Positions 3,708 to 38,070 of a stretch of 64,000 bases of DNA are shown piece after piece (position 1 is the first letter of the stretch; each line of letters begins with the position of its first letter). Made by a program: the position numbers and the translations under genes. The notes beneath the pieces are model-generated. The model was not told the origin of the DNA, did no database searches, and was given only the letters and a program-made list of their open reading frames with translations. Source of the DNA: Aureimonas fodinaquatilis (GTDB lineage: Bacteria; Pseudomonadota; Alphaproteobacteria; Rhizobiales; Rhizobiaceae); assembly GCF_008369445.1 (NCBI RefSeq), contig NZ_VTWH01000006.1, positions 124,001 through 188,000 on the forward strand, in the 5' to 3' direction.

Positions 3708-3709
3708 TA

Positions 3710-5158
3710 ATGGAATCTGACATGCACGCTCCTCTCTTCATCGATGGGCAGTGGATCGAAGCGCAAGCCACAGCCACTGTCTTCAATCCGGCCAGCGGGG
3801 AAGGCATCGGCACAGTCAGCCGGGCCGATGCGGCCCTGCTTGACCGCAGCCTTGAAGCAGCCCGCAAAGGCTTTGCACATTGGCGCAATGTGCCGGCCCA
3901 CGAGCGGGCGGCCATCATGCGCAAGGGCTGCGATATCATTCGGGAACGTGCACAAGGCATCGGGCGCATTCTTTCCGCCGAGCAGGGTAAGCCAGTTGCT
4001 GAGGCGGTTGGTGAAGTGCAGACCAGCGTCGATAATCTGGAATGGATGGCAGAGGAAGCCACCAGGGCTTATGGACGTTTGCTGGTTCCCCGCACGCCGG
4101 GAATTGAGCAGATTGTTCGCAAATCCCCCATCGGCCCGGTAGCCGCCTTCACGCCATGGAATTTTCCTGCGCTGACGCCGATGCGCAAGATTGGCGGGGC
4201 GCTTGCAGCCGGATGTTCCATCATTCTCAAGCCGTCTGAAGAAACACCGTTCACCGCGGTTGAGCTGGTACGCGCTTTTGCCGATGCTGGCGTTCCAGCC
4301 GGCGTTATCAATCTTGTGTTCGGCGACTCCCGGCTGATTTCCGGGCATCTGATTGACTCGCCGATCATCCGTAAAATCACCTTCACCGGATCTACCGCGG
4401 TTGGCAAGATTTTGCAGGCGCGCGCTGCACAGGGTGTAAAACGCGCAACCATGGAACTGGGCGGGCACGGCCCTGTCATTGTTTGCGATGATGTGGATGT
4501 CGACAGTGCTGCCCGACTTGCAGCGAAATCGAAGTTCCGCAACGCCGGACAGGTCTGCACGAGCCCGACGCGGTTCTTTGTGCAAAAGGGTGTCTACGAG
4601 CCCTTTGTCGAGGCTTTCACAGCAGCCACCAAGGCCCTGCGCATTGGAGAGGGCACTGAAGACAAGGTTGATATGGGGCCGCTGGCCAATGAGCGTCAGC
4701 TCAAAGCTGCGGAAAGCTTTGTTGCAGATGCTGTGGCAGCCGGTGCCAGGCTGACCACTGGCGGCAAGCGAATTGGCAATCGCGGGTTTTTCCATGAGCC
4801 AACTGTGCTGGCCGATGTGCCGGACAGCGCTCGCATCATGACGGAAGAACCCTTTGGACCGGTTGTGCCATTCCAGTCATTCGACACGCTGGACGAAGCC
4901 CTCTGCAAGGCCAACAGCCTGCCCTATGCACTGGCCGGTTATGTGATGACCCGCTCATTGTCCCGTTCGGCGCGGTTGAGTGAAGAGATAGAGGCGGGAA
5001 TGGTCGTGGTGAACCACTTCAGCGTTTCCACCCCCTATTCTCCATTCGGCGGCATGAAGGAAAGCGGCGACGGGCTGGAAGGCGGCATTGAGGGTCTGGA
5101 TGCCTATCTGGTCAGCAAGACAGTGACGACGCGCGTTGCAGGCGGAGATCTCGACTGA
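3710..5158 (+). CDS. NAD(P)-dependent aldehyde dehydrogenase, succinate-semialdehyde dehydrogenase type
   Basis: Oxidises an aldehyde to the acid; the closest family by sequence pattern is the GabD-type succinate-semialdehyde dehydrogenases. Counting from the second methionine (ATG at 3722), the PWNFP motif is at 145-149, the general-base Glu at 245 (MELGGHGP) and the nucleophilic Cys at 279 (NAGQVCTSP). All are intact and the length is normal (478-482 residues). The ATG at 3722 has a better-placed purine-rich stretch (GGAA) than the ATG at 3710, so the true protein may be 4 residues shorter. It lies 2 bases after the reductase stop and shares one base with the next gene. Paired with the iron alcohol dehydrogenase it could convert a 4-hydroxybutyrate-like alcohol to a dicarboxylate. 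Confidence 0.85.
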   Translation: MESDMHAPLFIDGQWIEAQATATVFNPASGEGIGTVSRADAALLDRSLEAARKGFAHWRNVPAHERAAIMRKGCDIIRERAQGIGRILSAEQGKPVAEAVGEVQTSVDNLEWMAEEATRAYGRLLVPRTPGIEQIVRKSPIGPVAAFTPWNFPALTPMRKIGGALAAGCSIILKPSEETPFTAVELVRAFADAGVPAGVINLVFGDSRLISGHLIDSPIIRKITFTGSTAVGKILQARAAQGVKRATMELGGHGPVIVCDDVDVDSAARLAAKSKFRNAGQVCTSPTRFFVQKGVYEPFVEAFTAATKALRIGEGTEDKVDMGPLANERQLKAAESFVADAVAAGARLTTGGKRIGNRGFFHEPTVLADVPDSARIMTEEPFGPVVPFQSFDTLDEALCKANSLPYALAGYVMTRSLSRSARLSEEIEAGMVVVNHFSVSTPYSPFGGMKESGDGLEGGIEGLDAYLVSKTVTTRVAGGDLD

Positions 5159-6312
5159 TGATTGGAACACCGTCACTGCAAGCGCCTGACACGATCAGTA
5201 TTCTGCAATTTCTCACCACAGTGCATTTCGGCTTCGGCGCATCGCAAAGGTTGCCCGCTCTGCTTGAGCAGGTGGGAAGCAAAAAGCCCTTGATCGTTTC
5301 GGATCACGGAGTGGCCAAGGCAGGGGTGCTCGACCAGGCGCTGTCTGCCCTGAATTCGGCGTCGGACCATCCACGCTTCCTTGATACGCCGGCAAACCCG
5401 ACCGAGGCAGCCGCCCGCGCAGGCGCTGATTTCTATGTCAGACAGGGCTGCGACGCCGTTATTGGTGTGGGTGGCGGGGCCGCGCTGGATCTGGCGAAGG
5501 CCATTGCCATTCTTGCCACAACGGACGCACCGCTGTGGGAATTCTGCAACCGCCACAGCGCATCGCGCCCGATAAAAAACCCTGCTCCACTTCTGCTGAT
5601 GCCCACCACGTCCGGCTCCGGCAGTGAAGTCGGGCGCTCTGCAGTCATTGTTTTTGACAATGGCATCAAGGCCGGGGTCGGGGCATCGGGTCTGGTGAGT
5701 GCCGCAATCTGCGATCCGGACCTGACATTGCGTCTGCCTGCCAGCGTCACGGCCGTTACGGCAATGGATGCGCTTTCCCACTGCATCGAAACCTATTCTT
5801 CGCCGGTGGCCAACCCGCCATGCGACGCCATTGCGCTGGATGGCCTGAAGCGTGGGCTGGCCCATGTGGAAAACGCCGTTGCCAATGGCGCGACTGACAA
5901 AGCGGCACGCTGGCATATGATGATGACATCGCTGCAGGGTGCCGTCTGCTTTCAGAAAGGCATGGGAGCAGTGCATGCACTTTCCCATCCGATAGGCGCG
6001 CTTGGCCATCATCATGGCACGCTGAACGCCATCTTCATGCCTTCTGTGCTGCGCTACAACCGGCAAGCGCTGGGCGATAAGTATCAGGCTTTGACCGCTG
6101 CACTGCCCGACGGCGCTACCGGCGACCTTGCCGACCATCTGGACAACCTCAATGACAGATTGGGCATACCGCGCCGCCTGTCACAGTTGGGTCTGACGGT
6201 TGAGCAACTGGACGCCATTCCTGAGAAGGCGTTGCTCGACAATGCTCACAAGACCAATCCCCGTCAGATCGATGCTTCCGGCTATCGAGAGCTGATCGCG
6301 ACGGTGTTTTAA
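5158..6312 (+). CDS. Iron-containing alcohol dehydrogenase (group III)
   Basis: NAD(P)- and Fe(II)-dependent oxidoreductase of the FucO/4-hydroxybutyrate dehydrogenase superfamily, 384 residues. A glycine-rich nucleotide loop GVGGGAALDLAK is near residues 103-114. Candidate metal ligands are Asp204 and His208 (MDALSHCIE), His273 (AVHALSH) and a His in the HHHGT run at 284-286. The ATG shares a base with the aldehyde dehydrogenase stop (TGATG), so the two enzymes are translationally coupled. That suggests successive oxidation of an alcohol and its aldehyde. The Agrobacterium blc operon pairs the same two families for gamma-hydroxybutyrate, but the rest of the operon here is different. Substrate unproven. 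Confidence 0.85.
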   Translation: MIGTPSLQAPDTISILQFLTTVHFGFGASQRLPALLEQVGSKKPLIVSDHGVAKAGVLDQALSALNSASDHPRFLDTPANPTEAAARAGADFYVRQGCDAVIGVGGGAALDLAKAIAILATTDAPLWEFCNRHSASRPIKNPAPLLLMPTTSGSGSEVGRSAVIVFDNGIKAGVGASGLVSAAICDPDLTLRLPASVTAVTAMDALSHCIETYSSPVANPPCDAIALDGLKRGLAHVENAVANGATDKAARWHMMMTSLQGAVCFQKGMGAVHALSHPIGALGHHHGTLNAIFMPSVLRYNRQALGDKYQALTAALPDGATGDLADHLDNLNDRLGIPRRLSQLGLTVEQLDAIPEKALLDNAHKTNPRQIDASGYRELIATVF

Positions 6313-6360
6313 AAGCAGAAATTGCAAGCTTTGCGCAGCAAAGCGGGGAGCCGTTCGACT

Positions 6361-7191
6361 ATGACAGAGCACGACAAAACCAGAAATGCAGTTCAGGACT
6401 GGTGGCAGACCGCAATTATCGACATGGAGCCCGGGCGTATCGGCATTCGCGGCTACCCCATCGAACAGCTCATCGGTTCAGTCAGTTTTGTTGAAATGAT
6501 CTGGTTGATGGTGCGCGGCGAATTGCCTGCGCGCGAACAGGCAAAATTGCTTGAAGCGGCGCTGGTTGCGGCGGTTGATCATGGCCCGCAGGCACCATCC
6601 ATTGCGATTGCCCGAATGGCCATGACTTGCGGCGGCAGTGTCAACAACGCCATGGCTTCCGCCATCAATGTGCTGGATGATGTGCATGGCGGCGCGGGGC
6701 AAGGCGCACTGGTTGTCTATTGCCAGATTTCCGAACGCATGGAACAGGGTGAACCGCTTGATACGGCAACCGATTCTGTGTTGCGGCCGATGCTGGATGC
6801 AAGGCAGATCATGCCGGGGTTCGGACATCGCTTTCACCCGATTGACCCACGCACGCCGCGTCTGATTGAGCTGGCAACCGTTGCGCGCACGCATGGGCAG
6901 ATTACCGGGCGGTTTCTCGATATTGCCGTTTCGGTGGAAAGCTGGCTGGCCGCCGCAAAGGGTAAGCACCTGCCGATGAACATCGATGGTATCACCGCCG
7001 CAATTTATGGCGAGCTTGGATTTGATCCGACAATGGCCCGCGGACTGTTCATCATCTCGCGTTCCATCGGCATTCTTTCGCATGCCTATGAGCAGTCGCA
7101 GATGGGCGGACGGATTAAAGGCCCTACCCCGCCCTCGCTTGGATATCGCTATACCGGCGAGCCGAAACGCACCGTGCCTGAACAGCAATGA
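6361..7191 (+). CDS. Citryl-CoA lyase / citrate synthase-like protein
   Basis: Small citrate-synthase-fold protein (276 residues from the ATG at 6361; the frame is open from 6322, but the first 13 residues do not resemble the family). It keeps the three active-site positions: His109 in DDVHGGAG, His156 in GFGHRFHPIDPR, and Asp209 in MNIDGITAA. Full citrate synthases have over 370 residues; this short form is the type annotated as citryl-CoA lyase, which cleaves or forms a citryl-type CoA thioester. No CoA ligase or CoA transferase is visible nearby. It overlaps the aconitase start by 4 bases (ATGA), linking the two. It probably acts on a citrate-like tricarboxylate; the direction of the reaction is unknown. 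Confidence 0.75.
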   Translation: MTEHDKTRNAVQDWWQTAIIDMEPGRIGIRGYPIEQLIGSVSFVEMIWLMVRGELPAREQAKLLEAALVAAVDHGPQAPSIAIARMAMTCGGSVNNAMASAINVLDDVHGGAGQGALVVYCQISERMEQGEPLDTATDSVLRPMLDARQIMPGFGHRFHPIDPRTPRLIELATVARTHGQITGRFLDIAVSVESWLAAAKGKHLPMNIDGITAAIYGELGFDPTMARGLFIISRSIGILSHAYEQSQMGGRIKGPTPPSLGYRYTGEPKRTVPEQQ

Positions 7192-9812
7192 TTGCCCGCA
7201 AAAACAGCTTCAGAACATTGCGGACCGATGCCGGTCAGCAGTTTGTGGACATGCATGCCGCTGATGCCTGTTTTCCGGGCCTGAACAGGCTGCCGATCTC
7301 TCTTCGGCTGCTGTTTGAAAACATGCTGCGCAATGAGGATGGCACCTCAGTCACCTCTGCCGATATTGAAGCTCTCGCACGGCGTGCGTATGGCGACACG
7401 GAAGAACTGGAAATCGCCTTCTACCCGACGCGCGTGCTGATGCAGGACTATGCAGGCATGCCGGCCCTGATCGACCTGGCAGCGCTGCGTGACTATGTGG
7501 CATCCAGCGGGCTTTCAGTGCAGGCGGTTAATCCGCGAGTGCGAACTGACGTTGTGGTAGACCATTCGATCATTGTTCATGACGCACGCTCTCCGCAATC
7601 GCTTGGCATCAACCAAGCACGCGAGATTGAAGACAATTACGAGCGTTTCGCATTTCTGAAATGGGCACAACAAGCCTTTGACAATCTGCGCATCGTGCCG
7701 CCGGGCCAAGGCATTGTTCACCAGATCAATCTGGAATATCTGGCTGATGTTGTCAGCCACATCACCGCAGAGGATGGCGATTGGCTGGTGCCCGATACGC
7801 TGATCGGCACCGACAGTCACACACCCATGATCAACGGCCTTGGCGTACTGGGCTGGGGCGTCGGCGGAATTGAGGCAGAAGCTGTGATGATGGGTGAAGC
7901 CGTGTCGATGCTGGTTCCGCCGGTGATCGGCGTGCGGTTGACCGGCTCGATCAGCGAGGGAATTCTGGCCACGGATATTGTTCTCTCCCTCACGGAATGC
8001 CTGCGCAAGCGCGGCGTCGTTGGTGCATTTCTGGAGTTTTTTGGGCCGGGCGTTGCAGCCCTTTCGGTGGCCGATCGCGCAACAATTGCCAATATGACGC
8101 CGGAATTTGGCGCGACAATTTCGCTGTTTCCCTGCGATAGCAGCACTATGCGCTACCTTGCGCTGACCGGCCGCACACCAGCGCAACAGCACCGAACGCA
8201 AACCTATCTCCAACGCAATGGCTTCTGGCGCAATGACGATGTGGAGCCGCTGTTTGCCGATGTCGTGGAGTTCAACCTTTCTACGGTCGGCCGTGTTGCA
8301 TCAGGGCCAGCCCGTCCCGAGCAGCGACGGGACCTGTCTGAACTGCCCGGCCTGATTTCAAAGCGTCCCGAAGGCGCAGCGATACCGGATGAAGCCGTGG
8401 TGCGGGATGGTGACATCGTCATTGCGGCAATCACCAGTTGCACCAACACATCCAACCCGGTGGCCATGCTTGCGGCAGGGCTTCTGGCTCGAAAAGCTCG
8501 CATACTGGGGCTGAACGTGCCGGATCATGTCAAAACATCGCTGGCACCAGGTTCCCGCGTTGTTGCCGATTACCTGCAGGAAACCGGCCTCATGGAAGAT
8601 TTATCTGCCTTGGGGTTTGATCTGGTGGGGTTTGGTTGCACAACATGTGTCGGCAATTCCGGCGAACTGGCAGGCCCGATCAGCACTGCTATTGATGCGC
8701 ACGGTCTGGATGTTGCAGCCGTTCTGTCGGGCAACCGTAACTTTGAAGCGCGCATCCATTCGAAGATCAAAAGCAATTTTCTGGTCTCACCGCCTCTGGT
8801 TGTTGCCTATGCTCTGGCGGGAACAGTGTTGCGCGATCTGACCTCAGAGCCGATCGGCATCTCGACTTCAGGCAATCCGGTGCATCTTTCCGATATCTGG
8901 CCAACAGCCGGGGAAATTGAGACCGCCGCGCTTGTGGCGGAAAACCCCGAGCGTTTTGCTGCGCGATATTCCGGCGTCTTTGACGGTGGACCGTTGTGGG
9001 CAGACCTGCCAGCGGACACGGGCGAACGCTTTTCCTGGGCAGAGGAAAGCACCTATTTTAAACGGCCGCCATTTTTTGACATGCCGCCGGTTGCCGCACC
9101 CCATTCACCAGTGCTGAATCAAGCCCGGCCGCTTCTGCTGCTGGGCGACAGCGTCACAACCGATCACATATCGCCTGTCGGTTCTATCGGGCCAGACAGC
9201 CCGGCTGGCCAATATCTTGTTTCACTGGGCGTGGAACGCGAAAGCTTCAACACCTATGGCGCAAGACGTGGCAATCATCAGGTTATGGCCAGAGGCACCT
9301 TTGCCAACCCCCGCCTGAAAAACCGACTTGCCGAAAGCGGAAATGGCAATGCCGCGATGACGGTGTTCAGTGACGCTGAGAACTTTGCCCAACAAGGCTG
9401 CTCAGCGGTGGTCATTGCTGGCAAAAATTATGGTGCTGGTTCTGCACGCGACTGGGCTGCAAAAGGAACCCGGCTGCTGGGCGTCAGCGCGATTCTGGCG
9501 GAAAGTTTTGAGCGGATCCACCGTTCCAACCTGGTGCGTATGGGTGTGCTGCCACTGCAATTTCCCGACGGATTTTCTGTGGCAACGCTGAACCTTGGCA
9601 GAGAGCACCGGTTTTCCATTGCTACAACAATGGAAGCGCTGGAACCGCGAATGTCCGTGCGGCTGGAGATCAGCGGCGGCCCGGTGGACATTGCGCCGAT
9701 TGATATGCTGGTCCGGATCGATACGGCGCAAGAGCTTCGCTATTTTCAGAATGGCGGAATATTGCAGTCCATCGCAGGAGACGTGATGGCCCGTGCGTCA
9801 GTACAAGGCTGA
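7188..9812 (+). CDS. acnA: Aconitate hydratase, AcnA type (operon-specific copy)
   Basis: [4Fe-4S] hydratase of 874 residues, close to the usual AcnA length of about 890. The iron-sulfur ligands are Cys418 (ITSCTNTS) and Cys484/Cys487 (GCTTCVG). The C-terminal swivel domain with GAGSARDWAAKGT is present, so the enzyme looks active. It is the last gene of the operon and overlaps the citryl-CoA lyase-like gene by 4 bases. Rhizobiales normally carry a separate housekeeping aconitase, so this copy probably isomerises the product or substrate of the neighbouring lyase (citrate or a substituted citrate). The symbol refers to the protein family, not to a proven TCA-cycle role. Confidence 0.85.
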   Translation: MIARKNSFRTLRTDAGQQFVDMHAADACFPGLNRLPISLRLLFENMLRNEDGTSVTSADIEALARRAYGDTEELEIAFYPTRVLMQDYAGMPALIDLAALRDYVASSGLSVQAVNPRVRTDVVVDHSIIVHDARSPQSLGINQAREIEDNYERFAFLKWAQQAFDNLRIVPPGQGIVHQINLEYLADVVSHITAEDGDWLVPDTLIGTDSHTPMINGLGVLGWGVGGIEAEAVMMGEAVSMLVPPVIGVRLTGSISEGILATDIVLSLTECLRKRGVVGAFLEFFGPGVAALSVADRATIANMTPEFGATISLFPCDSSTMRYLALTGRTPAQQHRTQTYLQRNGFWRNDDVEPLFADVVEFNLSTVGRVASGPARPEQRRDLSELPGLISKRPEGAAIPDEAVVRDGDIVIAAITSCTNTSNPVAMLAAGLLARKARILGLNVPDHVKTSLAPGSRVVADYLQETGLMEDLSALGFDLVGFGCTTCVGNSGELAGPISTAIDAHGLDVAAVLSGNRNFEARIHSKIKSNFLVSPPLVVAYALAGTVLRDLTSEPIGISTSGNPVHLSDIWPTAGEIETAALVAENPERFAARYSGVFDGGPLWADLPADTGERFSWAEESTYFKRPPFFDMPPVAAPHSPVLNQARPLLLLGDSVTTDHISPVGSIGPDSPAGQYLVSLGVERESFNTYGARRGNHQVMARGTFANPRLKNRLAESGNGNAAMTVFSDAENFAQQGCSAVVIAGKNYGAGSARDWAAKGTRLLGVSAILAESFERIHRSNLVRMGVLPLQFPDGFSVATLNLGREHRFSIATTMEALEPRMSVRLEISGGPVDIAPIDMLVRIDTAQELRYFQNGGILQSIAGDVMARASVQG

Positions 9813-11340: not shown

Positions 11341-11357
11341 AGTATGAAAATCATACT
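11341..11357. promoter_or_regulatory. Perfect 17-bp palindrome, candidate operator of the DUF899 gene
   Basis: AGTATGA-AAA-TCATACT is a perfect inverted repeat 33-49 bases upstream of the DUF899 start, overlapping the 3' end of the phytochrome gene. Size and symmetry fit the binding site of a small dimeric winged-helix repressor (ArsR- or HxlR-like), but no such regulator is encoded in the window. The operator role is inferred. Confidence 0.45.
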
Positions 11358-13498
11358 GAATCAAGTCCGGCATCGGCATGGCGCGCTTCGTCTGCATCCA
11401 TAATGGGGCATGTCATGACAATCCTCAGGCCCGGTGCGTTGTCTTCGGCCTGAATTGTGCCGTTCAGGCTCTGCACCAGCGATGTCAGCATCTTTGACCC
11501 GAACCCGGTACCTTCCGTCTTGCCACTGTAACCCTTGCCGCGGTCCGACACGATAAGGCGCAGATTCTCCCGGAACTGCTCCAGCCGCACAACAACCGGT
11601 CCGGGTTGCCCGTCATAGGCATATTTGGAAACGTTGGTGATCAGCTCATTCACCACAAGGCCAAGCCGCACGGCTTTGTCCGTGCTGATGAGAATTGGCG
11701 TCAGATCCACCGTTATCCGCCTATCCCAGTCGGCGTCCATTGTCGTCTTCAATTCGTCGACCAGCTCTTCCAAATAGCGCGAGAGGTCGATGACGCTGAC
11801 ACTGTCGGCCTGATAAAGGCGACGATGCACAAGACCGACAGACACCAGTCTCCTTTGAGCCTCATCGAGCTGCTTTTTAACTTCCGCGTCGGCATTTCGG
11901 CTTTGCATCCGCAAAAATGCAGCCACAAGCGCCAGACTGTTCTGCACCCGGTGGTTCACTTCCTTGAGCAGATAATCCTTCTGCTGGATCAGGCTTTCAT
12001 TCTCTCGCAATGTCGTTGTCAATTCGCGATTCAGTTCCCGCATGCGCCGATTGTTCCGTACTTCCAGCATCAGCTTGACGATTCTGGTCGCCGATTCCGT
12101 TTCGGCATGCGTCCATTCGCGCGAGCGGCCGGAAACGCTTTCAGACCACGCTTCAAAAGATACTCTGGGCGCCAGCGTGACATCGGGTGAATATTCCACG
12201 TCCTTATGAGGATTGCCTGCCCATTTGACGGTTTGCAGTTGCTCTGCACGAAACCACATCAGAATGGTTGGCACCTCAGTCGACATAGTCACCGCCAGCA
12301 AGCCGCTGGCAACATCCTTGTATGCCTCTGCACCCGGCATGCGTTTTGACAGCGTGCTGGTCACAAAGGGCTTTATGGCCGCCGGTTGCCGTACATGCTC
12401 GGCCACAGCCCGCAAATCCAGGTTTTCGGGGCAATTTCCCGCACAGAAAATGTCACCTCCCTGGGCCGCGGCAAAGCCATCAGCATGCATCAACGTTGCC
12501 AGTTCCTCGCCCGAACTTTCAAAAAATCCGGCAAGCCCGTCATTTGATCCCAGATGCCGAATGACCCTGTCCTCATGGGCACGAAGGCGCATGCGCTCAC
12601 GGTAAAGCTCGTTTTCGTCCCGTGTCTTGATTTGACGGGCCAGGGCAGCGGCAACTGTCTGGCAGGCAAGCCGCGTGGTGAGGGAAAGGACCCTTGGCTC
12701 ATGGTGGTGGCAAGCCACCAGACCCCACAAAATGCCGTCAATAACAATCGACATGGATGCAGAAGCCGCGACCCCCATGTTTTTAAGATACTGAATATGA
12801 ACCGGCGAAACGCTGCGCAGGGTGGAATCGCTCATATCGATGGACGATAAATCCGTGCTCGCGCTGACAACCGGCGCGGGCGTGTAATGCACATCGGCAA
12901 TCACCCGCACCTTGTTGCGCACGTAAAGCGCCCGCGCCTGTTTAGGAATGTCCGAAGCAGGAAAGTGGTGATTCATGAAGCTGGCAGACTGGTCGTTAAT
13001 GCTTTCGCCAAGAACAACACCCGCATCATCATCAGTGAACCGGTAGATCATGACGCGGCTGTAACCGGTCAGTTCTTGGAAAATACGGGCGGCCTGCTGA
13101 GACAGGTCGCCAAGTGAGCCCGTCTGATCAAGACTGACACCAATGGTTTCCATGTCTGCCAGAAACGCAGCATCAAGCGCCTCACCGCGAACCGTTGCCG
13201 TCAATTCAACAACAAGATGATTTTCGCTGCGATAGGCCACCGCATCAAAGAGCGAGCCCTCAAATGTGACGACGCCAAGTGCCACAAGGCCGGCTCTGGC
13301 CGACACCGAGGCTGTGCAATCCAGCCCGATCAAGTCTGCAATGGCGCGGCCCAGAACGTTCTGCTCGCTGTTTGCATAGCCAACCACTGTTCCCGAGAGA
13401 TCGGAAATCAACATAACCCCATATGGCTGAATCGCACCGGGTATATGAATTGGTTCGCGATCGCAGGAGGTCAGGTCGCTTGCATTAAACTCGCTCAT
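11351..13498 (-). CDS. bphP: Bacteriophytochrome sensor histidine kinase (HisKA_2/HWE type)
   Basis: Red/far-red photoreceptor kinase of 715 residues from the ATG at 13498. The longer frame to 13576 adds 26 residues that do not match the family. Domain order: PAS with Cys12 in the N-terminal SCDREPIHIPG segment (the biliverdin attachment site of bacterial phytochromes), GAF with the PASDIP motif and SPVHIQYLKNMGV, PHY with the WAGNPHK tongue motif, then a HisKA_2-type kinase with phospho-acceptor His516 (LKEVNHRVQNSL) and an HATPase. The start overlaps the heme oxygenase stop by 14 bases, so the two form an operon that makes chromophore and apoprotein together. No response regulator gene follows, so the phosphotransfer partner must be elsewhere. 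Confidence 0.93.
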   Translation of the reverse strand: MSEFNASDLTSCDREPIHIPGAIQPYGVMLISDLSGTVVGYANSEQNVLGRAIADLIGLDCTASVSARAGLVALGVVTFEGSLFDAVAYRSENHLVVELTATVRGEALDAAFLADMETIGVSLDQTGSLGDLSQQAARIFQELTGYSRVMIYRFTDDDAGVVLGESINDQSASFMNHHFPASDIPKQARALYVRNKVRVIADVHYTPAPVVSASTDLSSIDMSDSTLRSVSPVHIQYLKNMGVAASASMSIVIDGILWGLVACHHHEPRVLSLTTRLACQTVAAALARQIKTRDENELYRERMRLRAHEDRVIRHLGSNDGLAGFFESSGEELATLMHADGFAAAQGGDIFCAGNCPENLDLRAVAEHVRQPAAIKPFVTSTLSKRMPGAEAYKDVASGLLAVTMSTEVPTILMWFRAEQLQTVKWAGNPHKDVEYSPDVTLAPRVSFEAWSESVSGRSREWTHAETESATRIVKLMLEVRNNRRMRELNRELTTTLRENESLIQQKDYLLKEVNHRVQNSLALVAAFLRMQSRNADAEVKKQLDEAQRRLVSVGLVHRRLYQADSVSVIDLSRYLEELVDELKTTMDADWDRRITVDLTPILISTDKAVRLGLVVNELITNVSKYAYDGQPGPVVVRLEQFRENLRLIVSDRGKGYSGKTEGTGFGSKMLTSLVQSLNGTIQAEDNAPGLRIVMTCPIMDADEARHADAGLDSV

Positions 13499-14126
13499 TA
13501 ACGTCACTTTCGTATGCGGTAAGGGCAGTTTGAAAAACGCGCCTGGCTGCCGCCAAAGCCGCAGCATGGTCAACATTGGGAACGGTTTCCAACAATTGAC
13601 GGAAAGCCTGCCAGCGCCTCATGTCCGCAGATTGCAGGGCAAGATGGCGAGCACCCCATTCTGCGTCAAAGCCAAGCGCTGCGGCACGGCGCAAAAGAAG
13701 CTTTGCGCCCAGGGACGAACCTTCCAGCACATAGAATGCACCAAGTTTCTCGCCTTCAGAGCCAAATTCAAGCACAGGATCAATCGGCGTCGGGCGCGCC
13801 AGATCGAGATCGGCGAGATCGTGGCTGATGGCATCCAATATCAGTTGCGCAGACCAGAAGTCCGAATCTTTCAAGGCTGGCTCTACGACGCTCCGGAACC
13901 GGAAACTACCGACAAGATAGATCTTGTACTGTTCAATATCGTCAAATGAACCAATTGCGTTTTCCAGAATATGGTGAAGATCGAGAGTGTGGCGCTTGAG
14001 CGCACTGCGTAAACTGTCGTCGGTCAATAGAGAACTCCGGCCGGAACCCGAAGTGGAGAACCGGATGTGCGGCAAAATAACGAACATTGCGACGTTACGC
14101 CCAGTGACATTTTGTCCCTCTTTCAT
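13485..14126 (-). CDS. bphO: Heme oxygenase (biliverdin-producing, BphO type)
   Basis: Cleaves heme to biliverdin, CO and iron; biliverdin is the chromophore of the phytochrome encoded next. 213 residues. The N-terminal helix carries the proximal-heme pattern T-x3-HHxLE with the likely ligand His51. The distal-helix pattern appears as GAFYVLEGSSLGAK. About 35 residues precede the conserved region, so an internal start (for example Met14) is possible. First gene of a two-gene operon with bphP. The divergent MFS gene begins about 160 bases away, so promoters for both directions should lie at 14127-14284. Confidence 0.88.
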   Translation of the reverse strand: MKEGQNVTGRNVAMFVILPHIRFSTSGSGRSSLLTDDSLRSALKRHTLDLHHILENAIGSFDDIEQYKIYLVGSFRFRSVVEPALKDSDFWSAQLILDAISHDLADLDLARPTPIDPVLEFGSEGEKLGAFYVLEGSSLGAKLLLRRAAALGFDAEWGARHLALQSADMRRWQAFRQLLETVPNVDHAAALAAARRVFQTALTAYESDVNERV

Positions 14127-16080: not shown

Positions 16081-19542
<3,462 letters not shown>

Positions 19543-19562
19543 TGGCCCACTATTTTCCTCAT

Positions 19563-19590
19563 TAACTGGACGTTTCTATTGGTCCAGTTA
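19563..19590. promoter_or_regulatory. Inverted-repeat operator between mocR and yggS
   Basis: TAACTGGAC (19563-19571) and GTCCAGTTA (19582-19590) are perfect 9-base inverted arms with a 10-base spacer, centred between the divergent mocR and yggS starts. One dimeric regulator bound here could control both directions. The adjacent MocR-type protein is the obvious candidate; binding is inferred. Confidence 0.6.
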
Positions 19591-19636
19591 TTGCCATAAA
19601 TTGAAGAAATTCAAGTCAGGATGGCGCGTATTACCC

Positions 19637-20413
19637 ATGGCCACATTATTCGAAACTGAAACAGCAGAGCGCTTCGGCACAGACCCCCTCGCAACCTTTC
19701 AGCACAATATTGCAGAAGTGCAGGCGCGAATTGCCCGCGCCGCCGCAGCATCAGGCCGCAATGCGACGTCCATCCGCCTTCTGCCCATTACCAAAACTGT
19801 CCCTGCGGAGATTTTGCGTCATGCCTGGCAGGCTGGCCTTCGGTCTTTTGGTGAAAACAAAATTCAGGAAGCAATGTCAAAGCAGGAGGCCTTGCAGGAT
19901 CTGGCCATAGATTGGTGTGTTGTCGGCCACCTTCAGACCAACAAGGCCAAATATCTGGCGCGGTTCGCGCAGGAGTTTCACGCGCTCGACAGTTTGAAGC
20001 TTGCCGCACTGCTGAACAGTAGGCTGGAACTGGAAGACCGTACGCTGGACGTTTACGTGCAGGTCAACACATCGAACGAAGACAGCAAGTTCGGGCTGTC
20101 ACCAGATGACTTGCCGGAATTTGCCGACATGCTTGCGCTGTTTCCCCGCCTGCGCCCACGAGGGTTGATGACTTTGGCGCTGTTCAGCACGGACATGGCC
20201 AAGGTGCGCCCGTGTTTTGCGCGGCTTCGACGCCTGCGCGACACAGCCATAAAGCACAATGCAGCCTTGACCGAACTGTCGATGGGCATGTCTGGCGACT
20301 TCGAAGAGGCAATTATGGAGGGCGCGGATGTGGTGCGCGTGGGCCAAGCCATTTTTGGTCGGCGACCCACACCGGATTCTGATTATTGGCCAGGCTTCGC
20401 CGGGAGTTTGTAA
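19637..20413 (+). CDS. YggS/PLPBP-family pyridoxal-phosphate-binding protein (B6-operon copy)
   Basis: PLP-binding protein of the YggS/PROSC family, a single alanine-racemase-type barrel without known catalysis that helps PLP and amino-acid homeostasis. 258 residues from the ATG at 19637; the open frame to 19532 crosses the operator and is unlikely to be translated. The PLP lysine is Lys53 (LLPITKTVPAE), and the family segments FGENKIQEA, VGHLQTNKA and ELSMGMSGDFEEAI are present. The N-terminus is about 20 residues longer than usual. The stop overlaps the pdxY start (TAATG). A second, more typical YggS is encoded at 37232-37894. Confidence 0.88.
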   Translation: MATLFETETAERFGTDPLATFQHNIAEVQARIARAAAASGRNATSIRLLPITKTVPAEILRHAWQAGLRSFGENKIQEAMSKQEALQDLAIDWCVVGHLQTNKAKYLARFAQEFHALDSLKLAALLNSRLELEDRTLDVYVQVNTSNEDSKFGLSPDDLPEFADMLALFPRLRPRGLMTLALFSTDMAKVRPCFARLRRLRDTAIKHNAALTELSMGMSGDFEEAIMEGADVVRVGQAIFGRRPTPDSDYWPGFAGSL

Positions 20414-21243
20414 TGGACGTCATTTCTATTCAAAGTCAGGTTGTCTACGGCCATGTTGGCAACAGTGCAGCGGTTTTTCCAATGCAGGCCAAGGGCCTGG
20501 AAGTGGCCGCAGTGCCAACGGCACTTTTGTCAAACCACCCGCATTACCCGACCATACACGGCAAGATACTGGAACCGGAGCTGGTGGCAGCGCTTTTGCA
20601 AGGCGTTGAAGAGCGCGGCCTGGTTGATGAAGCAAAAGTTGTGGTGACCGGCTATCTTGGGTCGGCTGAAAACGCCGCTGTGGTTGCCGCATTCATTGAA
20701 CGCGCACTGCAAAGAAATCCGGATCTGATCTTTGTTTGCGATCCTGTTATGGGTGACGATGATATCGGCATTTTTGTCCAGGATGGTTTGATACCAGCCT
20801 TTCGCGATGTGCTTGTGCCAATGGCAACGGTGATGACTCCCAATCAATATGAACTGGAGTTGCTGACCGGCCTGAGCGCCCGCACCGCGCCTGCACTGGC
20901 CGACGCAATGGAAGCCTTGGCTGCACGCGGCGTGCAATCCGGGGCAATCACCGGCTGCGTACTGCATGACACGCCGCCTGGCATGGTTGAAAGCGTGACA
21001 TGGTCGCCAACTGACGGCCTCGCCCGGACGGCGGTCCGGCGACTGCCCATACGCCCGTGCGGCACGGGGGATTTGTTCACGGCTTTGATGATAGCCCGGC
21101 TTTGTGAGAATAAGCCGCTGGCGCAAGCCGCCCAGGAAGCAACAGCAGAGATTTTTCAGGTTCTGCAACGCACGGCAGAAAATCCTGCTACCGAAATGCG
21201 GATCACCGGCTTTCCTTTCATTCCATGCGGGCAGGAAAAATAG
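20413..21243 (+). CDS. pdxY: Pyridoxal kinase PdxY
   Basis: Phosphorylates pyridoxal to PLP (vitamin B6 salvage). 276 residues from the ATG at 20413, which shares a base with the yggS stop. Ribokinase-fold motifs seen: the N-terminal ISIQSQVVYGHVGNSAAVFPMQ segment that opens pyridoxal kinases, FVCDPVMGD in the middle, and the anion-hole/catalytic segment CGTGDLFTAL near the C-terminus. Placed between a PLP-binding protein and next to a MocR regulator, it forms a B6-homeostasis module. Confidence 0.92.
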   Translation: MDVISIQSQVVYGHVGNSAAVFPMQAKGLEVAAVPTALLSNHPHYPTIHGKILEPELVAALLQGVEERGLVDEAKVVVTGYLGSAENAAVVAAFIERALQRNPDLIFVCDPVMGDDDIGIFVQDGLIPAFRDVLVPMATVMTPNQYELELLTGLSARTAPALADAMEALAARGVQSGAITGCVLHDTPPGMVESVTWSPTDGLARTAVRRLPIRPCGTGDLFTALMIARLCENKPLAQAAQEATAEIFQVLQRTAENPATEMRITGFPFIPCGQEK

Positions 21244-21247
21244 TCCG

Positions 21248-22150
21248 ATGACAGTTTTTCAGGGGCTTTGCGCATTTCCATTAACGCCGGCAGATGCGCT
21301 GGGGCGAGTCGACTGTTTGGCGTTGGGCAGATTGGTCAAAAGACTGGCAGATGCCAGGGTGGACTCGATTGGCCTTCTGGGCAGCACCGGCACATACATG
21401 TATCTGAACAGGCAGGAGCGCCGTCGCGCCCTTGAAATCACCTTGTCGCAAACGTTCGGCAGCGTTCCTGTCATTGTCGGTGTTGGCGCGCTGCGCACGG
21501 ATGAGGCGATCGCACTGGCGCAGGATGCCCGGGCGATGGGTGCCGCGGCCGGACTTTTGGCTGCGGTTTCCTATACGGGTCTAACGGATAGCGAAGTGTA
21601 TGAACATTTTGCCAGCGTTGCACGCGAGAGCCAGCTTCCCCTGATCATATACGACAATCCCGGAACCACGCATTTCAAATTTTCTGATGCGCTTATCAGT
21701 GAACTCGCCAGACTTCCGGAGATCATTGCAATTAAAAATCCGGGTCAGGAGCCGCAGAACACCGCCCTGCATTTGGCTGATCAGAGAAAACTGACGCATG
21801 ATGGATTTTCCATTGGCTATAGTGGCGACTGGCTTTGCACTGAATCGATGATCGCCGGCGCGGACGCATGGTACAGTGTTCTGGCCGGTTTATGGCCAAA
21901 GGTCTGCCTGAAAGTCATGCATGCGGCCAAAGCTGGAAACACGGTTGAAGCGCGCCGATTGAACGCTGAGCTGGAACCGATCTGGACTTTGTTCCGGAAC
22001 CACAGCAGTTTGCGGGTCATGCATGTGCTGGCCAATGAGATGGGGCTAAGCAACGCCGCACCACCACGGCCCCTTCTGTCGCTGCCAGAGGCGACCAGAC
22101 AGGAAATCATATCACGTCTGTCAGCCATGCCTGCCGAACTTATGCAGTGA
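21248..22150 (+). CDS. Dihydrodipicolinate synthase-family (DapA-like) aldolase
   Basis: Class-I aldolase/lyase of the DapA/N-acetylneuraminate lyase superfamily, 300 residues. The Schiff-base lysine is Lys163 (IIAIKNPGQ) and the partner tyrosine is Tyr135 (IIYDNPGT). The N-terminal FPLTPADALGRVD and the GSTGTYMYL loop match the family, with GSTGTY in place of the usual GTTGE, so it is probably not the lysine-pathway enzyme itself. It starts 4 bases after pdxY and belongs to the same operon. Substrate unknown: a pyruvate- or aldehyde-adding/cleaving reaction is expected. Confidence 0.8.
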   Translation: MTVFQGLCAFPLTPADALGRVDCLALGRLVKRLADARVDSIGLLGSTGTYMYLNRQERRRALEITLSQTFGSVPVIVGVGALRTDEAIALAQDARAMGAAAGLLAAVSYTGLTDSEVYEHFASVARESQLPLIIYDNPGTTHFKFSDALISELARLPEIIAIKNPGQEPQNTALHLADQRKLTHDGFSIGYSGDWLCTESMIAGADAWYSVLAGLWPKVCLKVMHAAKAGNTVEARRLNAELEPIWTLFRNHSSLRVMHVLANEMGLSNAAPPRPLLSLPEATRQEIISRLSAMPAELMQ

Positions 22151-22225
22151 CTGTGCCGTTCCCGGATTGCTCCCGCAATAGCTTGTGCTACCACTGGTTT
22201 GCAAAGTTACATACGGAGCCTTGGC

Positions 22226-23356
22226 ATGAGCCTGATCACCTACCTGACGCGCATTCAGTTTGAAACTGGCGCTATCGACCTGCTTGCCAGTGAACTGGCG
22301 CTGTTGAAAATCAACAGGCCTTTGATCGTGACCGACAAGGGTGTGCGCGCAGCCGGTGTCCTGGATGCTGTTTTGGCCGGTGGCGGGCTGAGCCAGCCGG
22401 CAATTTTTGACGACACGCCGGGCAACCCGACTGAAAGCGCCGTACTGGCCGCACGAGATCTTTACCTTTCCGCTGGCTGTGACGGCATTGTTGCTGTTGG
22501 CGGCGGCTCACCGCTTGATCTGGCAAAAGCCGTTTCCCTTCTGGCAACCCATCCCGGCGCACTGGAGCAATATGCGGCCATATTGGGCGGGATAGAACGA
22601 ATTGGCCCGGACAAACCGGCCGTTATTGCCATTCCGACCACAGCAGGTACCGGCAGCGAAGTCGGGCGTGCCGCGCTCATCACCTTGGAAGATGGCCGCA
22701 AGCTCGGTTTCCTGTCGCCTTACATGATTCCGAATGTTGCGATCTGTGATCCTGCATTGACCCTGAAGCTGCCCGCTGGCCTGACTGCCGCCACCGGCAT
22801 GGACGCCCTGACCCATTGCATCGAAACCTTTCTATCGCCGCGCTTCAACCCGCCCGCCGACGCCATTGCTCTGGACGGCCTGGCGCGTGCCGTGCGTTAC
22901 ATCGCCCGTGCCTATCGTGATGGCGGCGATCTGGAAGCGCGCGAAGGCATGATGATGGCGTCGCTGCAAGGTGGCATGACATTTCAAAAAGGACTGGGCG
23001 CAGTGCATGGCATGAGCCACGCGCTGGGAGGCCTGAAGGAACTGCGCCTGCACCACGGCACGCTGAATGCCGTTATTCTCCCGGCTGTTCTGCGGTTTAA
23101 CAAAGCCGGAAATGAAGCAAAATACGCTGCTTTGCGCACTGCAATGGGGCTGTCGGAAAATGCCGATGTGGCAGAAGCCATTTCCACTCTGAATAAAGAA
23201 CTGGGCATGCCTGAAAGTCTGTCGCAAATGGGCGTTCCGGCGGATGTGCTGCCGTTGATGGTGGAACGTGCGCTTGCCGACCATTCCACTATCACCAATG
23301 GTCGCCCGGTTTCAGCAGATGATTATGCAAAACTGTTCGACGAAGTGTCTGGTTGA
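22226..23356 (+). CDS. Iron-containing alcohol dehydrogenase (group III), second copy
   Basis: 376 residues from the ATG at 22226, which has CGGAG 8 bases upstream. Nucleotide loop VGGGSPLDLAKA is near residues 91-102. Candidate iron ligands are Asp193 and His197 (MDALTHCIE), His261 (AVHGMSH) and His276/277 (LHHGT). It resembles the copy at 5158-6312 closely in motif order (GSEVGR, CDPxLTL, SPxxNPPxDAIALDGL), so the two are paralogs. It lies 75 bases after the aldolase gene, probably in the same transcript. It may oxidise or reduce the aldehyde made or used by the aldolase; this is inference from context. Confidence 0.85.
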   Translation: MSLITYLTRIQFETGAIDLLASELALLKINRPLIVTDKGVRAAGVLDAVLAGGGLSQPAIFDDTPGNPTESAVLAARDLYLSAGCDGIVAVGGGSPLDLAKAVSLLATHPGALEQYAAILGGIERIGPDKPAVIAIPTTAGTGSEVGRAALITLEDGRKLGFLSPYMIPNVAICDPALTLKLPAGLTAATGMDALTHCIETFLSPRFNPPADAIALDGLARAVRYIARAYRDGGDLEAREGMMMASLQGGMTFQKGLGAVHGMSHALGGLKELRLHHGTLNAVILPAVLRFNKAGNEAKYAALRTAMGLSENADVAEAISTLNKELGMPESLSQMGVPADVLPLMVERALADHSTITNGRPVSADDYAKLFDEVSG

Positions 23357-23363
23357 ATAATAA

Positions 23364-23399
23364 GGGCATTTTCGTGTGGTTCAGTCAGCGAAAATGCCC
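23364..23399. terminator. Bidirectional terminator hairpin between iron-ADH and thiolase genes
   Basis: GGGCATTTTCG (23364-23374) and CGAAAATGCCC (23389-23399) are perfect 11-base arms with a 14-base loop. It sits in the 58-base gap between two convergent genes. The A/T-rich arms can supply a short U-run in either direction. Confidence 0.7.
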
Positions 23400-23414
23400 A
23401 TTCATTTCGAGGGT

Positions 23415-36600: not shown

Positions 36601-37232
36601 GTGTCCCCACGCCCGACCAGCTTGATCAGTGGGGACACTTCGTGACTGACGGAAACCTGCGCAAAGCCAATGTCCCGAGCAATGGCTGCAATGCGCTTTT
36701 CATGTTCGGGAAAGCGGTGTGCATGCATGAAAACAATGGCGACAGCCTCATAGCCTTCGCTTTGCAAACGCCTGAGTGTCGAACGCACTTCCGCTTCGTC
36801 CAGCTCGATTTCCACCGTACCGTCGGCCAGGACGCGCTCGGCAATTTCCGAAACCTGATCATAAAGGACATCGGGCTTGATGATATTGCGGGCGAAAATA
36901 TCCTTCCGCTCCTGATAGCCAATAGCGAGTGCGTCGCGAAAGCCTTTGGTCGTCAGAAGGGCAAGCCGCTCACCTCTGCGCTCCAGCAAGGCATTGGTGG
37001 CAACGGTGGTGCCCATTCGCACCTCCCCCACAAGACCCGGTGCAATCGGCTCGCCCAAGCGCAAACCCAAAAGCTGTCGAATGCCATGCACGCCAGCATC
37101 GCCATAGGCTTGCGGGTTTTCCGACAGCACCTTCAGCGCATGCAGATTTTGCTGCGGATCCCGCCCGATCACATCGGTAAACGTGCCGCCCCGGTCAATC
37201 CAGAAATCCCAAACCCCTGTGTCTTGCCGCAT
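33627..37232 (-). CDS. 5-oxoprolinase (ATP-hydrolysing), fused HyuA-HyuB type
   Basis: Hydrolyses 5-oxo-L-proline (pyroglutamate) to glutamate with ATP, or a related hydantoin ring. 1201 residues: the HyuA-like ATPase half starts with [14 protein letters not shown] (residues about 10-23), and the HyuB half starts near residue 690 ([16 protein letters not shown]) and ends in [12 protein letters not shown]-like Gly-rich sequence. This is the eukaryote/OplA-like fused form rather than separate hyuA and hyuB. Its ATG shares one base with the stop of the upstream yggS (TGATG), so the two are coupled. A parS-like palindrome is embedded at 35504-35517. Confidence 0.9.
35504..35517. other. parS-like site 1 (inside the oxoprolinase gene)
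   Basis: GTTTCACGTGAAAC, the perfect 14-base core of the ParB-binding palindrome TGTTTCACGTGAAACA; the outer bases (C before, T after) do not complete the 16-mer. Centromere-like site of the parAB system encoded at 42432-44321, about 17 kb from the proposed origin. Confidence 0.75.
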
Positions 37233-37894
37233 CAGGAACGCACTCCAAAGATTGCACTGCCCACCCGCACGCTGGTTGCGCCATGTGCCACCGCAATCTC
37301 GTAATCACCGGACATGCCCATTGAAATCACGTCAACACCCGCCTCACCCGCCAGTTTTCGCAAGAGATCAAAATGCGGACCGGCCTGCTCGTCAACGGGG
37401 GGAATGCACATCAGCCCGCTGATCGTCAGCCCATGTTCCAGACGACACCGCGCCACAAATGCCACCGCCTCGTCAGGCAGGATGCCAGCCTTTTGCGCCT
37501 CGTTGCCCGTGTTCACCTGGACATAGAGTTCCGGCCATTTTTGCTGCCTGTCCATTTCACGCGCCAGTTCCCGGGCAATTTTCTCCCGGTCAACGGTCTC
37601 GATCACATCAAAAAGCGCCACGGCATCCGCCGCCTTGTTGGATTGCAGCGGCCCGATCAGATGCAGCGCAAGATCGGGAAATTCACTGCGCAACGCAGGA
37701 AATTTCGAAGCCGCCTCCTGCACGCGGTTTTCACCGAAATGCCGATGTCCGGCATGAAGCAATGGCAGCACGGCATCCGCCGGATAGGTTTTGGAAACCG
37801 CAACAAGCCGTGTTGAACCCGGATTGCGCCCTGCGGCAAGCTCCGCATTGGCAATATCTGCCTTCACCGACTCGTAGCGTGCTGTCACATTCAT
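37232..37894 (-). CDS. yggS: YggS/PLPBP-family pyridoxal-phosphate homeostasis protein
   Basis: 220 residues from the ATG at 37894, which is preceded by GGGAGAGG; the frame to 37975 is not supported. PLP lysine is Lys35 ([11 protein letters not shown]). Family segments [19 protein letters not shown] and [13 protein letters not shown] are all present, so this is the standard chromosomal PLPBP. It controls PLP supply and amino-acid/keto-acid balance without known catalysis. Translationally coupled to 5-oxoprolinase and divergent from leuS. The paralog at 19637-20413 is longer and linked to pdxY. Confidence 0.92.
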
Positions 37895-38070
37895 TATATA
37901 TGCCTCTCCCGTGAAGACTTCGGATTGCCCTATCCATGTCATCCGTTTATCGGTTCCATAGCCCAGTTCAACCATGGCATGAAGCTTGCAATGGTTGACG
38001 TAGTGCTTCTGTCATGGTGAAGCACTGCAATTCCTTCGTCGTGAAATTTTTGAAAGATCGCTGCGTTATC

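What the first reader, a model, noticed from the sequence alone, without database searches (positions are those of the whole stretch)
19637..23356. Vitamin B6 module extended by an unknown aldolase and dehydrogenase
yggS, pdxY and a DapA-type aldolase are joined by a TAATG overlap and a 4-base gap, and an iron-ADH follows within 75 bases, all beside a PdxR-like regulator. The aldolase has Lys163 and Tyr135 but a changed substrate loop (GSTGTY). An aldehyde-handling step linked to PLP homeostasis, for instance control of reactive aldehydes, is possible and to my knowledge undescribed.
Basis: partly seen in the sequence, partly recalled or inferred. Interest (0 to 1): 0.55.

Follow-up and report, generated by a model that had tools for sequence, protein, structure and literature searches.

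The report
Vitamin B6 operon with unassigned aldolase
A bacterial gene group that manages vitamin B6 includes an enzyme of unknown job whose relatives often sit beside genes for coping with a toxic plant amino acid, while the last gene, an alcohol dehydrogenase, seems to be a local add-on.

Summary
A MocR/PdxR-type regulator (18067-19539, -) faces yggS (19637), pdxY (20413, 1-base overlap), a DHDPS-family aldolase (21248, 4-base gap) and an iron-ADH (22226, 75-base gap). I saw no terminator-like site before the ADH; a strong hairpin follows it. A repeated operator (ACTGGnCCA-N14-AACTGGAC) lies in the divergent gap and is shared with relatives. The aldolase's link to regulator and YggS is real: of the 80 best named aldolase relatives, 26 have a regulator of this type nearby and 44 have some recurrent partner, against 0 of 20 control loci. 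The ADH is not part of it: no orthologue was detected in the 80. Suvorova & Rodionov 2016 already list COG325 (YggS) and DapA-family genes in PdxR regulons. New here: this aldolase clade recurs with a PLP gamma-lyase-type enzyme, CtdA (canavanyl-tRNA deacylase), LysE/RhtC exporters and homoserine-breakdown operons. I read the aldolase as a Schiff-base lyase for an oxo acid from a PLP-reactive amino acid such as canavanine or homoserine. The substrate is untested; this genome shows no CtdA or gamma-lyase orthologue, and 11 more distant regulator loci show no aldolase.

The parts
18067..19539 (-). MocR/PdxR-type regulator (GntR HTH plus aminotransferase-like domain); ATG start, 490 aa
   Evidence: Pfam GntR + Aminotran_1_2; NCBIfam NF052282 PdxR 428 bits over cut-off 320; regulators 62-66% identical to it lie near the aldolase in 22 of 80 named loci, 48-57% in 4 more
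19541..19591 (.). Operator in the divergent gap: ACTGGCCCA-N14-AACTGGAC...GTCCAGTT
   Evidence: Alignment of intergenic regions; exact direct-repeat motif once in the window (0.06 expected by shuffles at up to 2 mismatches), in 20 of the 26 named loci with the regulator and 0 of 20 control loci; the AACTGGA..CCAGT part occurs once in the genome at up to 1 mismatch, but the reversed control pattern gives 1 and 1, so that count alone is no evidence
19637..20413 (+). yggS-2: PLP-binding YggS/COG325 protein of a specialised clade
   Evidence: TIGR00044; 60-73% identical to YggS found in other loci with PdxR, PdxY or aldolase, about 40% to this genome's second YggS at 37232-37975
20413..21243 (+). 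pdxY: pyridoxal kinase family, overlaps the yggS stop by one base
   Evidence: TIGR00687 215 bits over 144.5; 69% identical to the Shinella daejeonensis protein
21248..22150 (+). DHDPS-family (class I, Schiff-base) aldolase/lyase of unknown substrate; 300 aa
   Evidence: Pfam PF00701 145 bits; closest solved relative 2r8w, 313.5 bits; GSTGxY, Y109, Y135, K163 in 106/106 rows; Thr140 in 102/106, at the place of the Arg in DHDPS 3pud
22226..23356 (+). Iron-containing alcohol dehydrogenase, 4-hydroxybutyrate dehydrogenase type; apparently a lineage-specific neighbour
   Evidence: NF058672 566 bits over 500; Pfam Fe-ADH; no conserved link to the other genes detected
23364..23399 (.). Hairpin after the ADH, before the convergent thiolase gene: likely end of the transcription unit
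   Evidence: RNA fold of 23350-23414: -21.5 kcal/mol, z -4.0, 0 of 200 shuffles as stable; it was not in the tool's terminator list

Best explanation
This is a MocR/PdxR-controlled operon that keeps pyridoxal phosphate (PLP) available and clears a product made by, or reacting with, PLP enzymes. Inferred working: the regulator, which has a PLP-enzyme-like sensor domain, binds the operator between itself and yggS and switches the operon. YggS-2 buffers PLP and PdxY re-phosphorylates pyridoxal. The aldolase forms a Schiff base through Lys163 with a 2-oxo acid and splits it to pyruvate (or a near relative) and a small carbonyl compound. The likeliest substrate class is the oxo acid of a gamma-substituted four-carbon amino acid (homoserine or canavanine type), for example 4-hydroxy-2-oxobutanoate to pyruvate plus formaldehyde. 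The ADH was added in this lineage and, if co-transcribed, would reduce the resulting small aldehyde or a 4-carbon semialdehyde. Shown: the genes, their families, the conserved operator-like sequence, and the recurrent link of regulator, YggS and aldolase. Inferred: regulation, substrate, chemistry, and any role of the ADH.
For: Operator shared with most aligned regulator loci. 26 of 80 named aldolase loci with a regulator of this type, 44 of 80 with any recurrent partner, 0 of 20 control DHDPS-paralogue loci. YggS clade found with regulator, PdxY or aldolase. The aldolase tree places the window in a starred 38-row set that holds every row with a gamma-lyase or YggS neighbour. Context of relatives: CtdA homologues in 14 of 80 (55-100% identical to the L093 protein, which gives 285 bits to PDB 9f7e), LysE in 11, RhtC in 12, gamma-lyase type in 21; homoserine-catabolic genes near the aldolase in L053, L077, L287 and L290. 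Pyruvate-dependent aldolases are reported to turn 2-oxo-4-hydroxybutyrate into pyruvate and formaldehyde (PMC13279387, passages). Catalytic Lys/Tyr present and the DHDPS Arg replaced.
Against: This genome has no CtdA hit (the tool warns that an empty answer without a positive control shows little, though the same query hits 14 of 80 named loci) and no gamma-lyase orthologue (best 36%). 36 of 80 aldolase loci show no recurrent partner. All 11 order-level regulator loci looked at (53-61% identical) have an FMN_bind_2 gene beside the regulator and none has the aldolase; none of 14 order-level PdxY loci has it either. The five-gene order was found in no other genome searched. No metabolite or expression data. 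Partner queries came from the loci themselves, and many loci are close relatives of one another (Mesorhizobium).
Confidence: 0.42

Rival explanations
1. Plain PLP homeostasis: the operon is an ordinary PdxR regulon for B6 salvage. The aldolase is a recurrent but secondary member doing general pyruvate chemistry, and the ADH is a separate 4-hydroxybutyrate dehydrogenase read through from upstream.
For: PdxR regulons with COG325 and DapA-family members are already reported. The ADH passes the 4-hydroxybutyrate dehydrogenase model and is unlinked elsewhere as far as seen. In 11 of 11 order-level regulator loci the neighbour is an FMN_bind_2 gene, followed by yggS in three (L253-L255), without an aldolase.
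Against: The aldolase clade is enriched with specific partners (44/80 vs 0/20) in several different operon layouts, which a passenger would hardly give.
Confidence: 0.33
2. Reactive-aldehyde control: aldolase and ADH form one pathway that scavenges aldehydes which would otherwise trap pyridoxal or PLP enzymes.
For: 75-base gap without a terminator-like site, strong hairpin only after the ADH; aldolase-type active site.
Against: No ADH beside the 80 named aldolase relatives except one 27% hit at 3.8 kb (79 of the 80 have at least 1.5 kb of DNA after the aldolase). It belongs to a 4-hydroxybutyrate dehydrogenase family.
Confidence: 0.12
3. Canaline or oxime repair: the aldolase uses its pyruvate Schiff base to take up aminooxy compounds (as the pyruvate oxime) that would otherwise tie up PLP, with YggS and PdxY restoring PLP.
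For: Canaline is described as toxic through stable oximes with carbonyl compounds (PMC10018355, introduction); CtdA, exporter and PdxR contexts of the aldolase clade.
Against: I know of no DHDPS-family enzyme that does this (recalled; not searched). This genome shows no CtdA and no gamma-lyase orthologue.
Confidence: 0.05

Closest known systems
PdxR regulons (Suvorova & Rodionov 2016, PMC5320631; abstract, section 11 and found passages seen)
   Same: MocR-type regulator passing the PdxR model, with a B6 kinase, COG325 (YggS) and a DapA-family gene; repeated boxes in the divergent gap
   Different: The paper pools families over many genomes, names pdxK (pdxY does not occur in its text) and gives the DapA-family gene no role; 'aldolase' and 'alcohol dehydrogenase' do not occur in its main text
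Canavanine utilisation/defence loci with CtdA and canavanine-gamma-lyase (Hauth et al. 2023, PMC10018355; abstract, introduction and found passages seen; Hauth et al. 2022 not held)
   Same: Relatives of the aldolase lie near CtdA homologues, exporters, a PLP gamma-lyase-type enzyme and homoserine/aspartate catabolic genes
   Different: The window genome shows no CtdA and no gamma-lyase orthologue; the word 'aldolase' does not occur in the main text of PMC10018355; whether the cluster gamma-lyase is canavanine-gamma-lyase is not shown
DHDPS-family protein AGR_C_1641p (PDB 2r8w; Agrobacterium gene Atu0899 by recall)
   Same: Closest solved relative (313.5 bits over residues 2-296), with matching GSTG-x-Y and Y-N-N-P-x-T-T stretches
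   Different: Listed under a locus name only; I know of no assigned function
4-hydroxybutyrate dehydrogenase NF058672
   Same: The ADH scores 566 bits, cut-off 500
   Different: No 4-hydroxybutyrate pathway gene was recognised next to it; a second family-like ADH (433 bits, below cut-off) sits elsewhere in the window at 5158-6312

Membership tests
PdxR-type MocR regulator | GntR DNA-binding plus aminotransferase-like domain, above the PdxR model cut-off | tested here: met
   (428 vs 320 bits)
PdxR-type MocR regulator | Divergent operator made of repeated CTGG-type boxes, shared with orthologues | tested here: met
   (sequence only)
PdxR-type MocR regulator | Binds PLP and controls B6 genes | not testable with these tools
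   needs binding and expression assays
YggS/PLPBP (COG325) | TIGR00044 above cut-off | tested here: met
   (186 vs 106 bits)
Pyridoxal kinase | TIGR00687 above cut-off | tested here: met
   (215 vs 144.5 bits)
PdxY in the narrow sense | PRK05756 equivalog cut-off | tested here: not met
   (245 vs 292 bits); hence 'pyridoxal kinase family', with pdxY as a working name
DHDPS/NAL superfamily (class I aldolase) | Pfam PF00701 and Schiff-base lysine | tested here: met
   (K163 in 106/106 rows); catalysis itself not tested
DapA (dihydrodipicolinate synthase) | DapA equivalog cut-off and the substrate Arg (Arg138 of E. coli, numbering recalled) | tested here: not met
   135 vs 206 bits; Thr140 at that place in the alignment with 3pud
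N-acetylneuraminate lyase | Equivalog cut-offs PRK04147 and nanA | tested here: not met
   85 vs 281 and 56 vs 382 bits
4-hydroxybutyrate dehydrogenase (ADH gene) | NF058672 above cut-off | tested here: met
   566 vs 500 bits
4-hydroxybutyrate dehydrogenase (ADH gene) | Oxidises 4-hydroxybutyrate | not testable with these tools
   needs an enzyme assay
Canavanine utilisation locus | CtdA and a gamma-lyase present with homoserine catabolism | tested here: not met
   in the window genome: no CtdA hit, gamma-lyase best 36%; in relatives partly met

The most novel reading that the evidence does not exclude
The PdxR-type regulators facing these aldolase operons control a response to canavanine-type, PLP-reactive amino acids. 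In rhizobia the regulon combines a PLP gamma-lyase, a MOSC plus flavin/iron-sulphur reductase pair that could reduce hydroxyguanidine, CtdA, exporters, YggS/PdxY for PLP repair, and the aldolase as an unrecognised step. The window carries a cut-down version in which a 4-hydroxybutyrate-type dehydrogenase has joined the aldolase.
Probability: 0.25. Interest if true: 0.65.

Novelty: new variant of a known kind. Interest (0 to 1): 0.42.

Why it matters
An unassigned DHDPS-family enzyme that keeps turning up with PdxR-type regulators would gain a testable substrate class. It would link B6 homeostasis, through a PLP-sensing regulator family, to how plant-associated bacteria withstand or eat toxic plant amino acids. 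If that fails, the work still shows that the ADH should be left out of the module and that the 'substrate loop' is a family signature.

Tried and rejected
Rejected: (1) ADH as a conserved module member. (2) 'Changed loop' as special to this protein. (3) DapA or N-acetylneuraminate lyase function. (4) Foreign island by composition: GC is flat, 0.54-0.59 over 14-29 kb; this does not exclude transfer from a similar genome. (5) The gamma-lyase of relatives as methionine gamma-lyase proper: 471 bits vs cut-off 666, and the place of Cys116 is Asn in the alignment with 3vk2 (number and meaning of Cys116 recalled).

Led nowhere: pdxY orthologues on plasmids (no match at 1e-80); canavanine paper of 2022 not held; no paper with MocR and canavanine (0); one paper with canavanine and dihydrodipicolinate synthase, a plant root-hair review judged from the listing; no paper beyond PMC5320631 with three of PdxR, yggS, DapA, dihydrodipicolinate synthase; PMC9997740, passages only, nothing on yggS, aldolase or ADH. 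First operator spacing typed one base too long gave no hits, corrected. The relaxed operator pattern (one substitution) hits 52 of 80 named and also 7 of 20 control loci, so only the exact pattern is used as evidence; relaxed hits before CtdA-RhtC-aldolase genes (L093, L096, L097, L099, L113) are suggestive only.

Places within 10 kb were compared by eye, only for matches above the stated E-values, in partly fragmented genomes. In some searches, 3 of 109 aldolase rows were dropped for in-frame stops.
Full report
Observation. The regulator passes the PdxR model, YggS passes TIGR00044, the kinase passes the pyridoxal kinase model TIGR00687 (but not the narrower PdxY model), the aldolase is a DHDPS-family protein that passes no equivalog cut-off, and the ADH passes the 4-hydroxybutyrate dehydrogenase model NF058672. 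There is no terminator-like site in the 75-base gap before the ADH and the stretch 22148-22226 folds like its shuffles (z 0.11), while a strong hairpin (z -4.0, 0 of 200 shuffles as stable) lies between the ADH and the convergent thiolase. So one transcript through the ADH is possible but unmeasured.

The operator. The 97 bases between regulator and yggS hold ACTGGCCCA-N14-AACTGGAC followed by GTCCAGTT. Alignment with the same gap of 26 other loci shows these boxes as the conserved core in most of them, weaker in the four with the most distant regulators. The exact direct-repeat part is found in 20 of the 26 named loci with the regulator, in one further named locus without it (L082), and in none of 20 control loci. 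In the window it occurs once (0.06 expected at up to 2 mismatches). The AACTGGA..CCAGT part occurs once in the 3.9-Mb genome at up to one mismatch, where the reversed control pattern gives one hit on each strand, so that genome count by itself is no evidence; its conservation is.

Conservation of the set. By the listed places no genome other than the window's has two of these matches within 10 kb; one further genome (G170) has an apparent 3' remnant of pdxY before the aldolase. In 20 same-genus genomes the closer aldolase matches are 49-54% identical (two more are split, with 65-66% only over about 60 residues), and none of the 8 loci fetched for them shows regulator, YggS, PdxY or ADH within 1.5 kb. 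In 397 genomes of the order, 15 have a close PdxY (E 1e-65) and 13 a close regulator (E 1e-150), own included. Of the 12 other regulator loci, one (G183) has the regulator facing gamma-lyase and aldolase; the other 11 (53-61% identical regulators) have no aldolase, all 11 have an FMN_bind_2-type gene beside the regulator, and three also have yggS. None of the 14 other PdxY loci shows an aldolase (1.5-kb flanks for all 14, about 7 kb for four of them). These are results against a fixed regulator-aldolase or kinase-aldolase pairing.

Named relatives. Within these loci: a PdxR-type regulator in 26 of 80 (62-66% identical in 22), a Cys/Met-type PLP gamma-lyase family enzyme in 21, ArgP in 13, LysE in 11, RhtC in 12, a B3/4 protein in 14, YggS in 5, PdxY in 1, the ADH in 1 (27% identity, 3.8 kb away); at least one of regulator, gamma-lyase, YggS, PdxY, LysE, RhtC or B3/4 in 44 of 80. 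In 20 control loci around other DHDPS paralogues each of these counts is 0 of 20. Thirty-six of 80 show none of these partners. Layouts include regulator facing gamma-lyase-aldolase (Mesorhizobium, Ensifer, some Microvirga), regulator facing gamma-lyase-yggS-aldolase (Microvirga L039, L057), regulator facing yggS-aldolase (Hyphomicrobium L060; Bosea plasmid), MFS-yggS-pdxY-aldolase (Shinella L035), CtdA-RhtC-aldolase (Mesorhizobium L093 and others) and ArgP facing LysE-type exporter and aldolase (R. leguminosarum and S. medicae plasmids).

What the partners are. The B3/4 protein is CtdA-like: 285 bits to the solved CtdA canavanyl-tRNA deacylase 9f7e. A CtdA homologue is reported beside canavanine degradation genes in Rhizobium leguminosarum (PMC10018355, passages). 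On R. leguminosarum plasmid pRLN3 the aldolase lies with ArgP and a LysE-family gene between an amino-acid ABC transporter with a class-V PLP enzyme and RidA on one side, and phosphotransferase (homoserine kinase-like), aspartate ammonia-lyase, dapA, aldehyde dehydrogenase and homoserine dehydrogenase genes on the other. In three Ensifer/Sinorhizobium loci (L053, L077, L290) the regulator-gamma-lyase-aldolase set is followed by that same homoserine set (in L290 the stretch is cut before homoserine dehydrogenase). Thirteen of 80 loci also have a MOSC protein and a PDR/VanB-type reductase near the regulator; the MOSC enzyme mARC reduces N-hydroxyguanidines (PMC10302757, passages), and hydroxyguanidine is the product named for canavanine-gamma-lyase (PMC10018355). 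A canavanine exporter, MsiA, is described in PMC3333776 (passages; that it is of the LysE family is recalled). That the gamma-lyase here is canavanine-gamma-lyase is inference.

The aldolase. In 106 aligned rows (window included) GSTG-x-Y, Tyr109, Tyr135 and Lys163 are invariant; position 49 varies; Thr140 (102 of 106) stands where DHDPS 3pud has Arg. So the Schiff-base machinery is there and the DHDPS substrate residue is not. In the tree the window is a long single branch inside a starred set of 38 rows that holds every row with a gamma-lyase or YggS neighbour; its exact place inside is not resolved (89/77). Pyruvate aldolases are reported to turn 2-oxo-4-hydroxybutyrate into pyruvate and formaldehyde (PMC13279387, passages), which suggests a reaction that would fit homoserine-linked operons; this is a proposal, not a result.

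YggS. The operon YggS is 60-73% identical to YggS proteins found with regulator, PdxY or aldolase in other genomes and about 40% to this genome's other, intact YggS at 37232-37975. This supports joint inheritance of regulator, YggS and aldolase.

Against the wider reading: the window genome has no CtdA hit at E 1e-5 and no gamma-lyase orthologue (best 36%). So the canavanine setting cannot simply be carried over to it.

Known or new. Suvorova & Rodionov 2016 list COG325 proteins, pdxK and DapA-family genes in PdxR regulons, and note DapA and RhtB families in MocR regulons of unknown function (PMC5320631, section 11). So the core link was in print. I found no paper joining MocR and canavanine and none relevant joining canavanine and dihydrodipicolinate synthase in the library searched. 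The verdict is a new variant of a known kind, with what looks like a lineage-specific ADH.

Noticed in passing
window 37232-37975 (-): A second, intact YggS of 247 aa, only about 40% identical to the operon copy; probably the housekeeping one.
   Followed up: partly
window 2694-9812 (+): Tightly packed ORFs: oxidoreductase-like, aldehyde-dehydrogenase-like (3710-5158), a second 4-hydroxybutyrate-dehydrogenase-like Fe-ADH (5158-6312; 433 bits, cut-off 500), citrate-synthase-like and aconitase-like; possibly a 4-carbon semialdehyde pathway. Only the Fe-ADH was scanned; the other names are read from the sequence.
   Followed up: partly
window 13485-14126 (-): 213-aa ORF beside and slightly overlapping a phytochrome-like kinase ORF (11351-13576, name by eye); no Pfam or NCBIfam match at 0.001; possibly a haem oxygenase (guess).
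   Followed up: no
L037, L043, L053, L077, L285, L290 and others: Behind the regulator lie a MOSC protein and a PDR/VanB-type reductase (13 of 80 named loci), with an annotated transketolase in L285 and L290; relaxed operator copies precede them in several loci. Possibly a hydroxyguanidine reductase.
   Followed up: partly
L250-L260: An FMN_bind_2 (PaiB-like) gene lies beside the regulator in 11 of 11 order-level loci, followed by yggS in L253-L255, without the aldolase.
   Followed up: partly
L202:4026-4493: Apparent 3' remnant of pdxY directly before an intact aldolase gene: the kinase seems to be decaying while the aldolase is kept.
   Followed up: no
L287 (R. leguminosarum pRLN3, 100188-115081): Two DHDPS-family genes, the aldolase of this report and a dapA, in one homoserine/aspartate catabolic region.
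   Followed up: no
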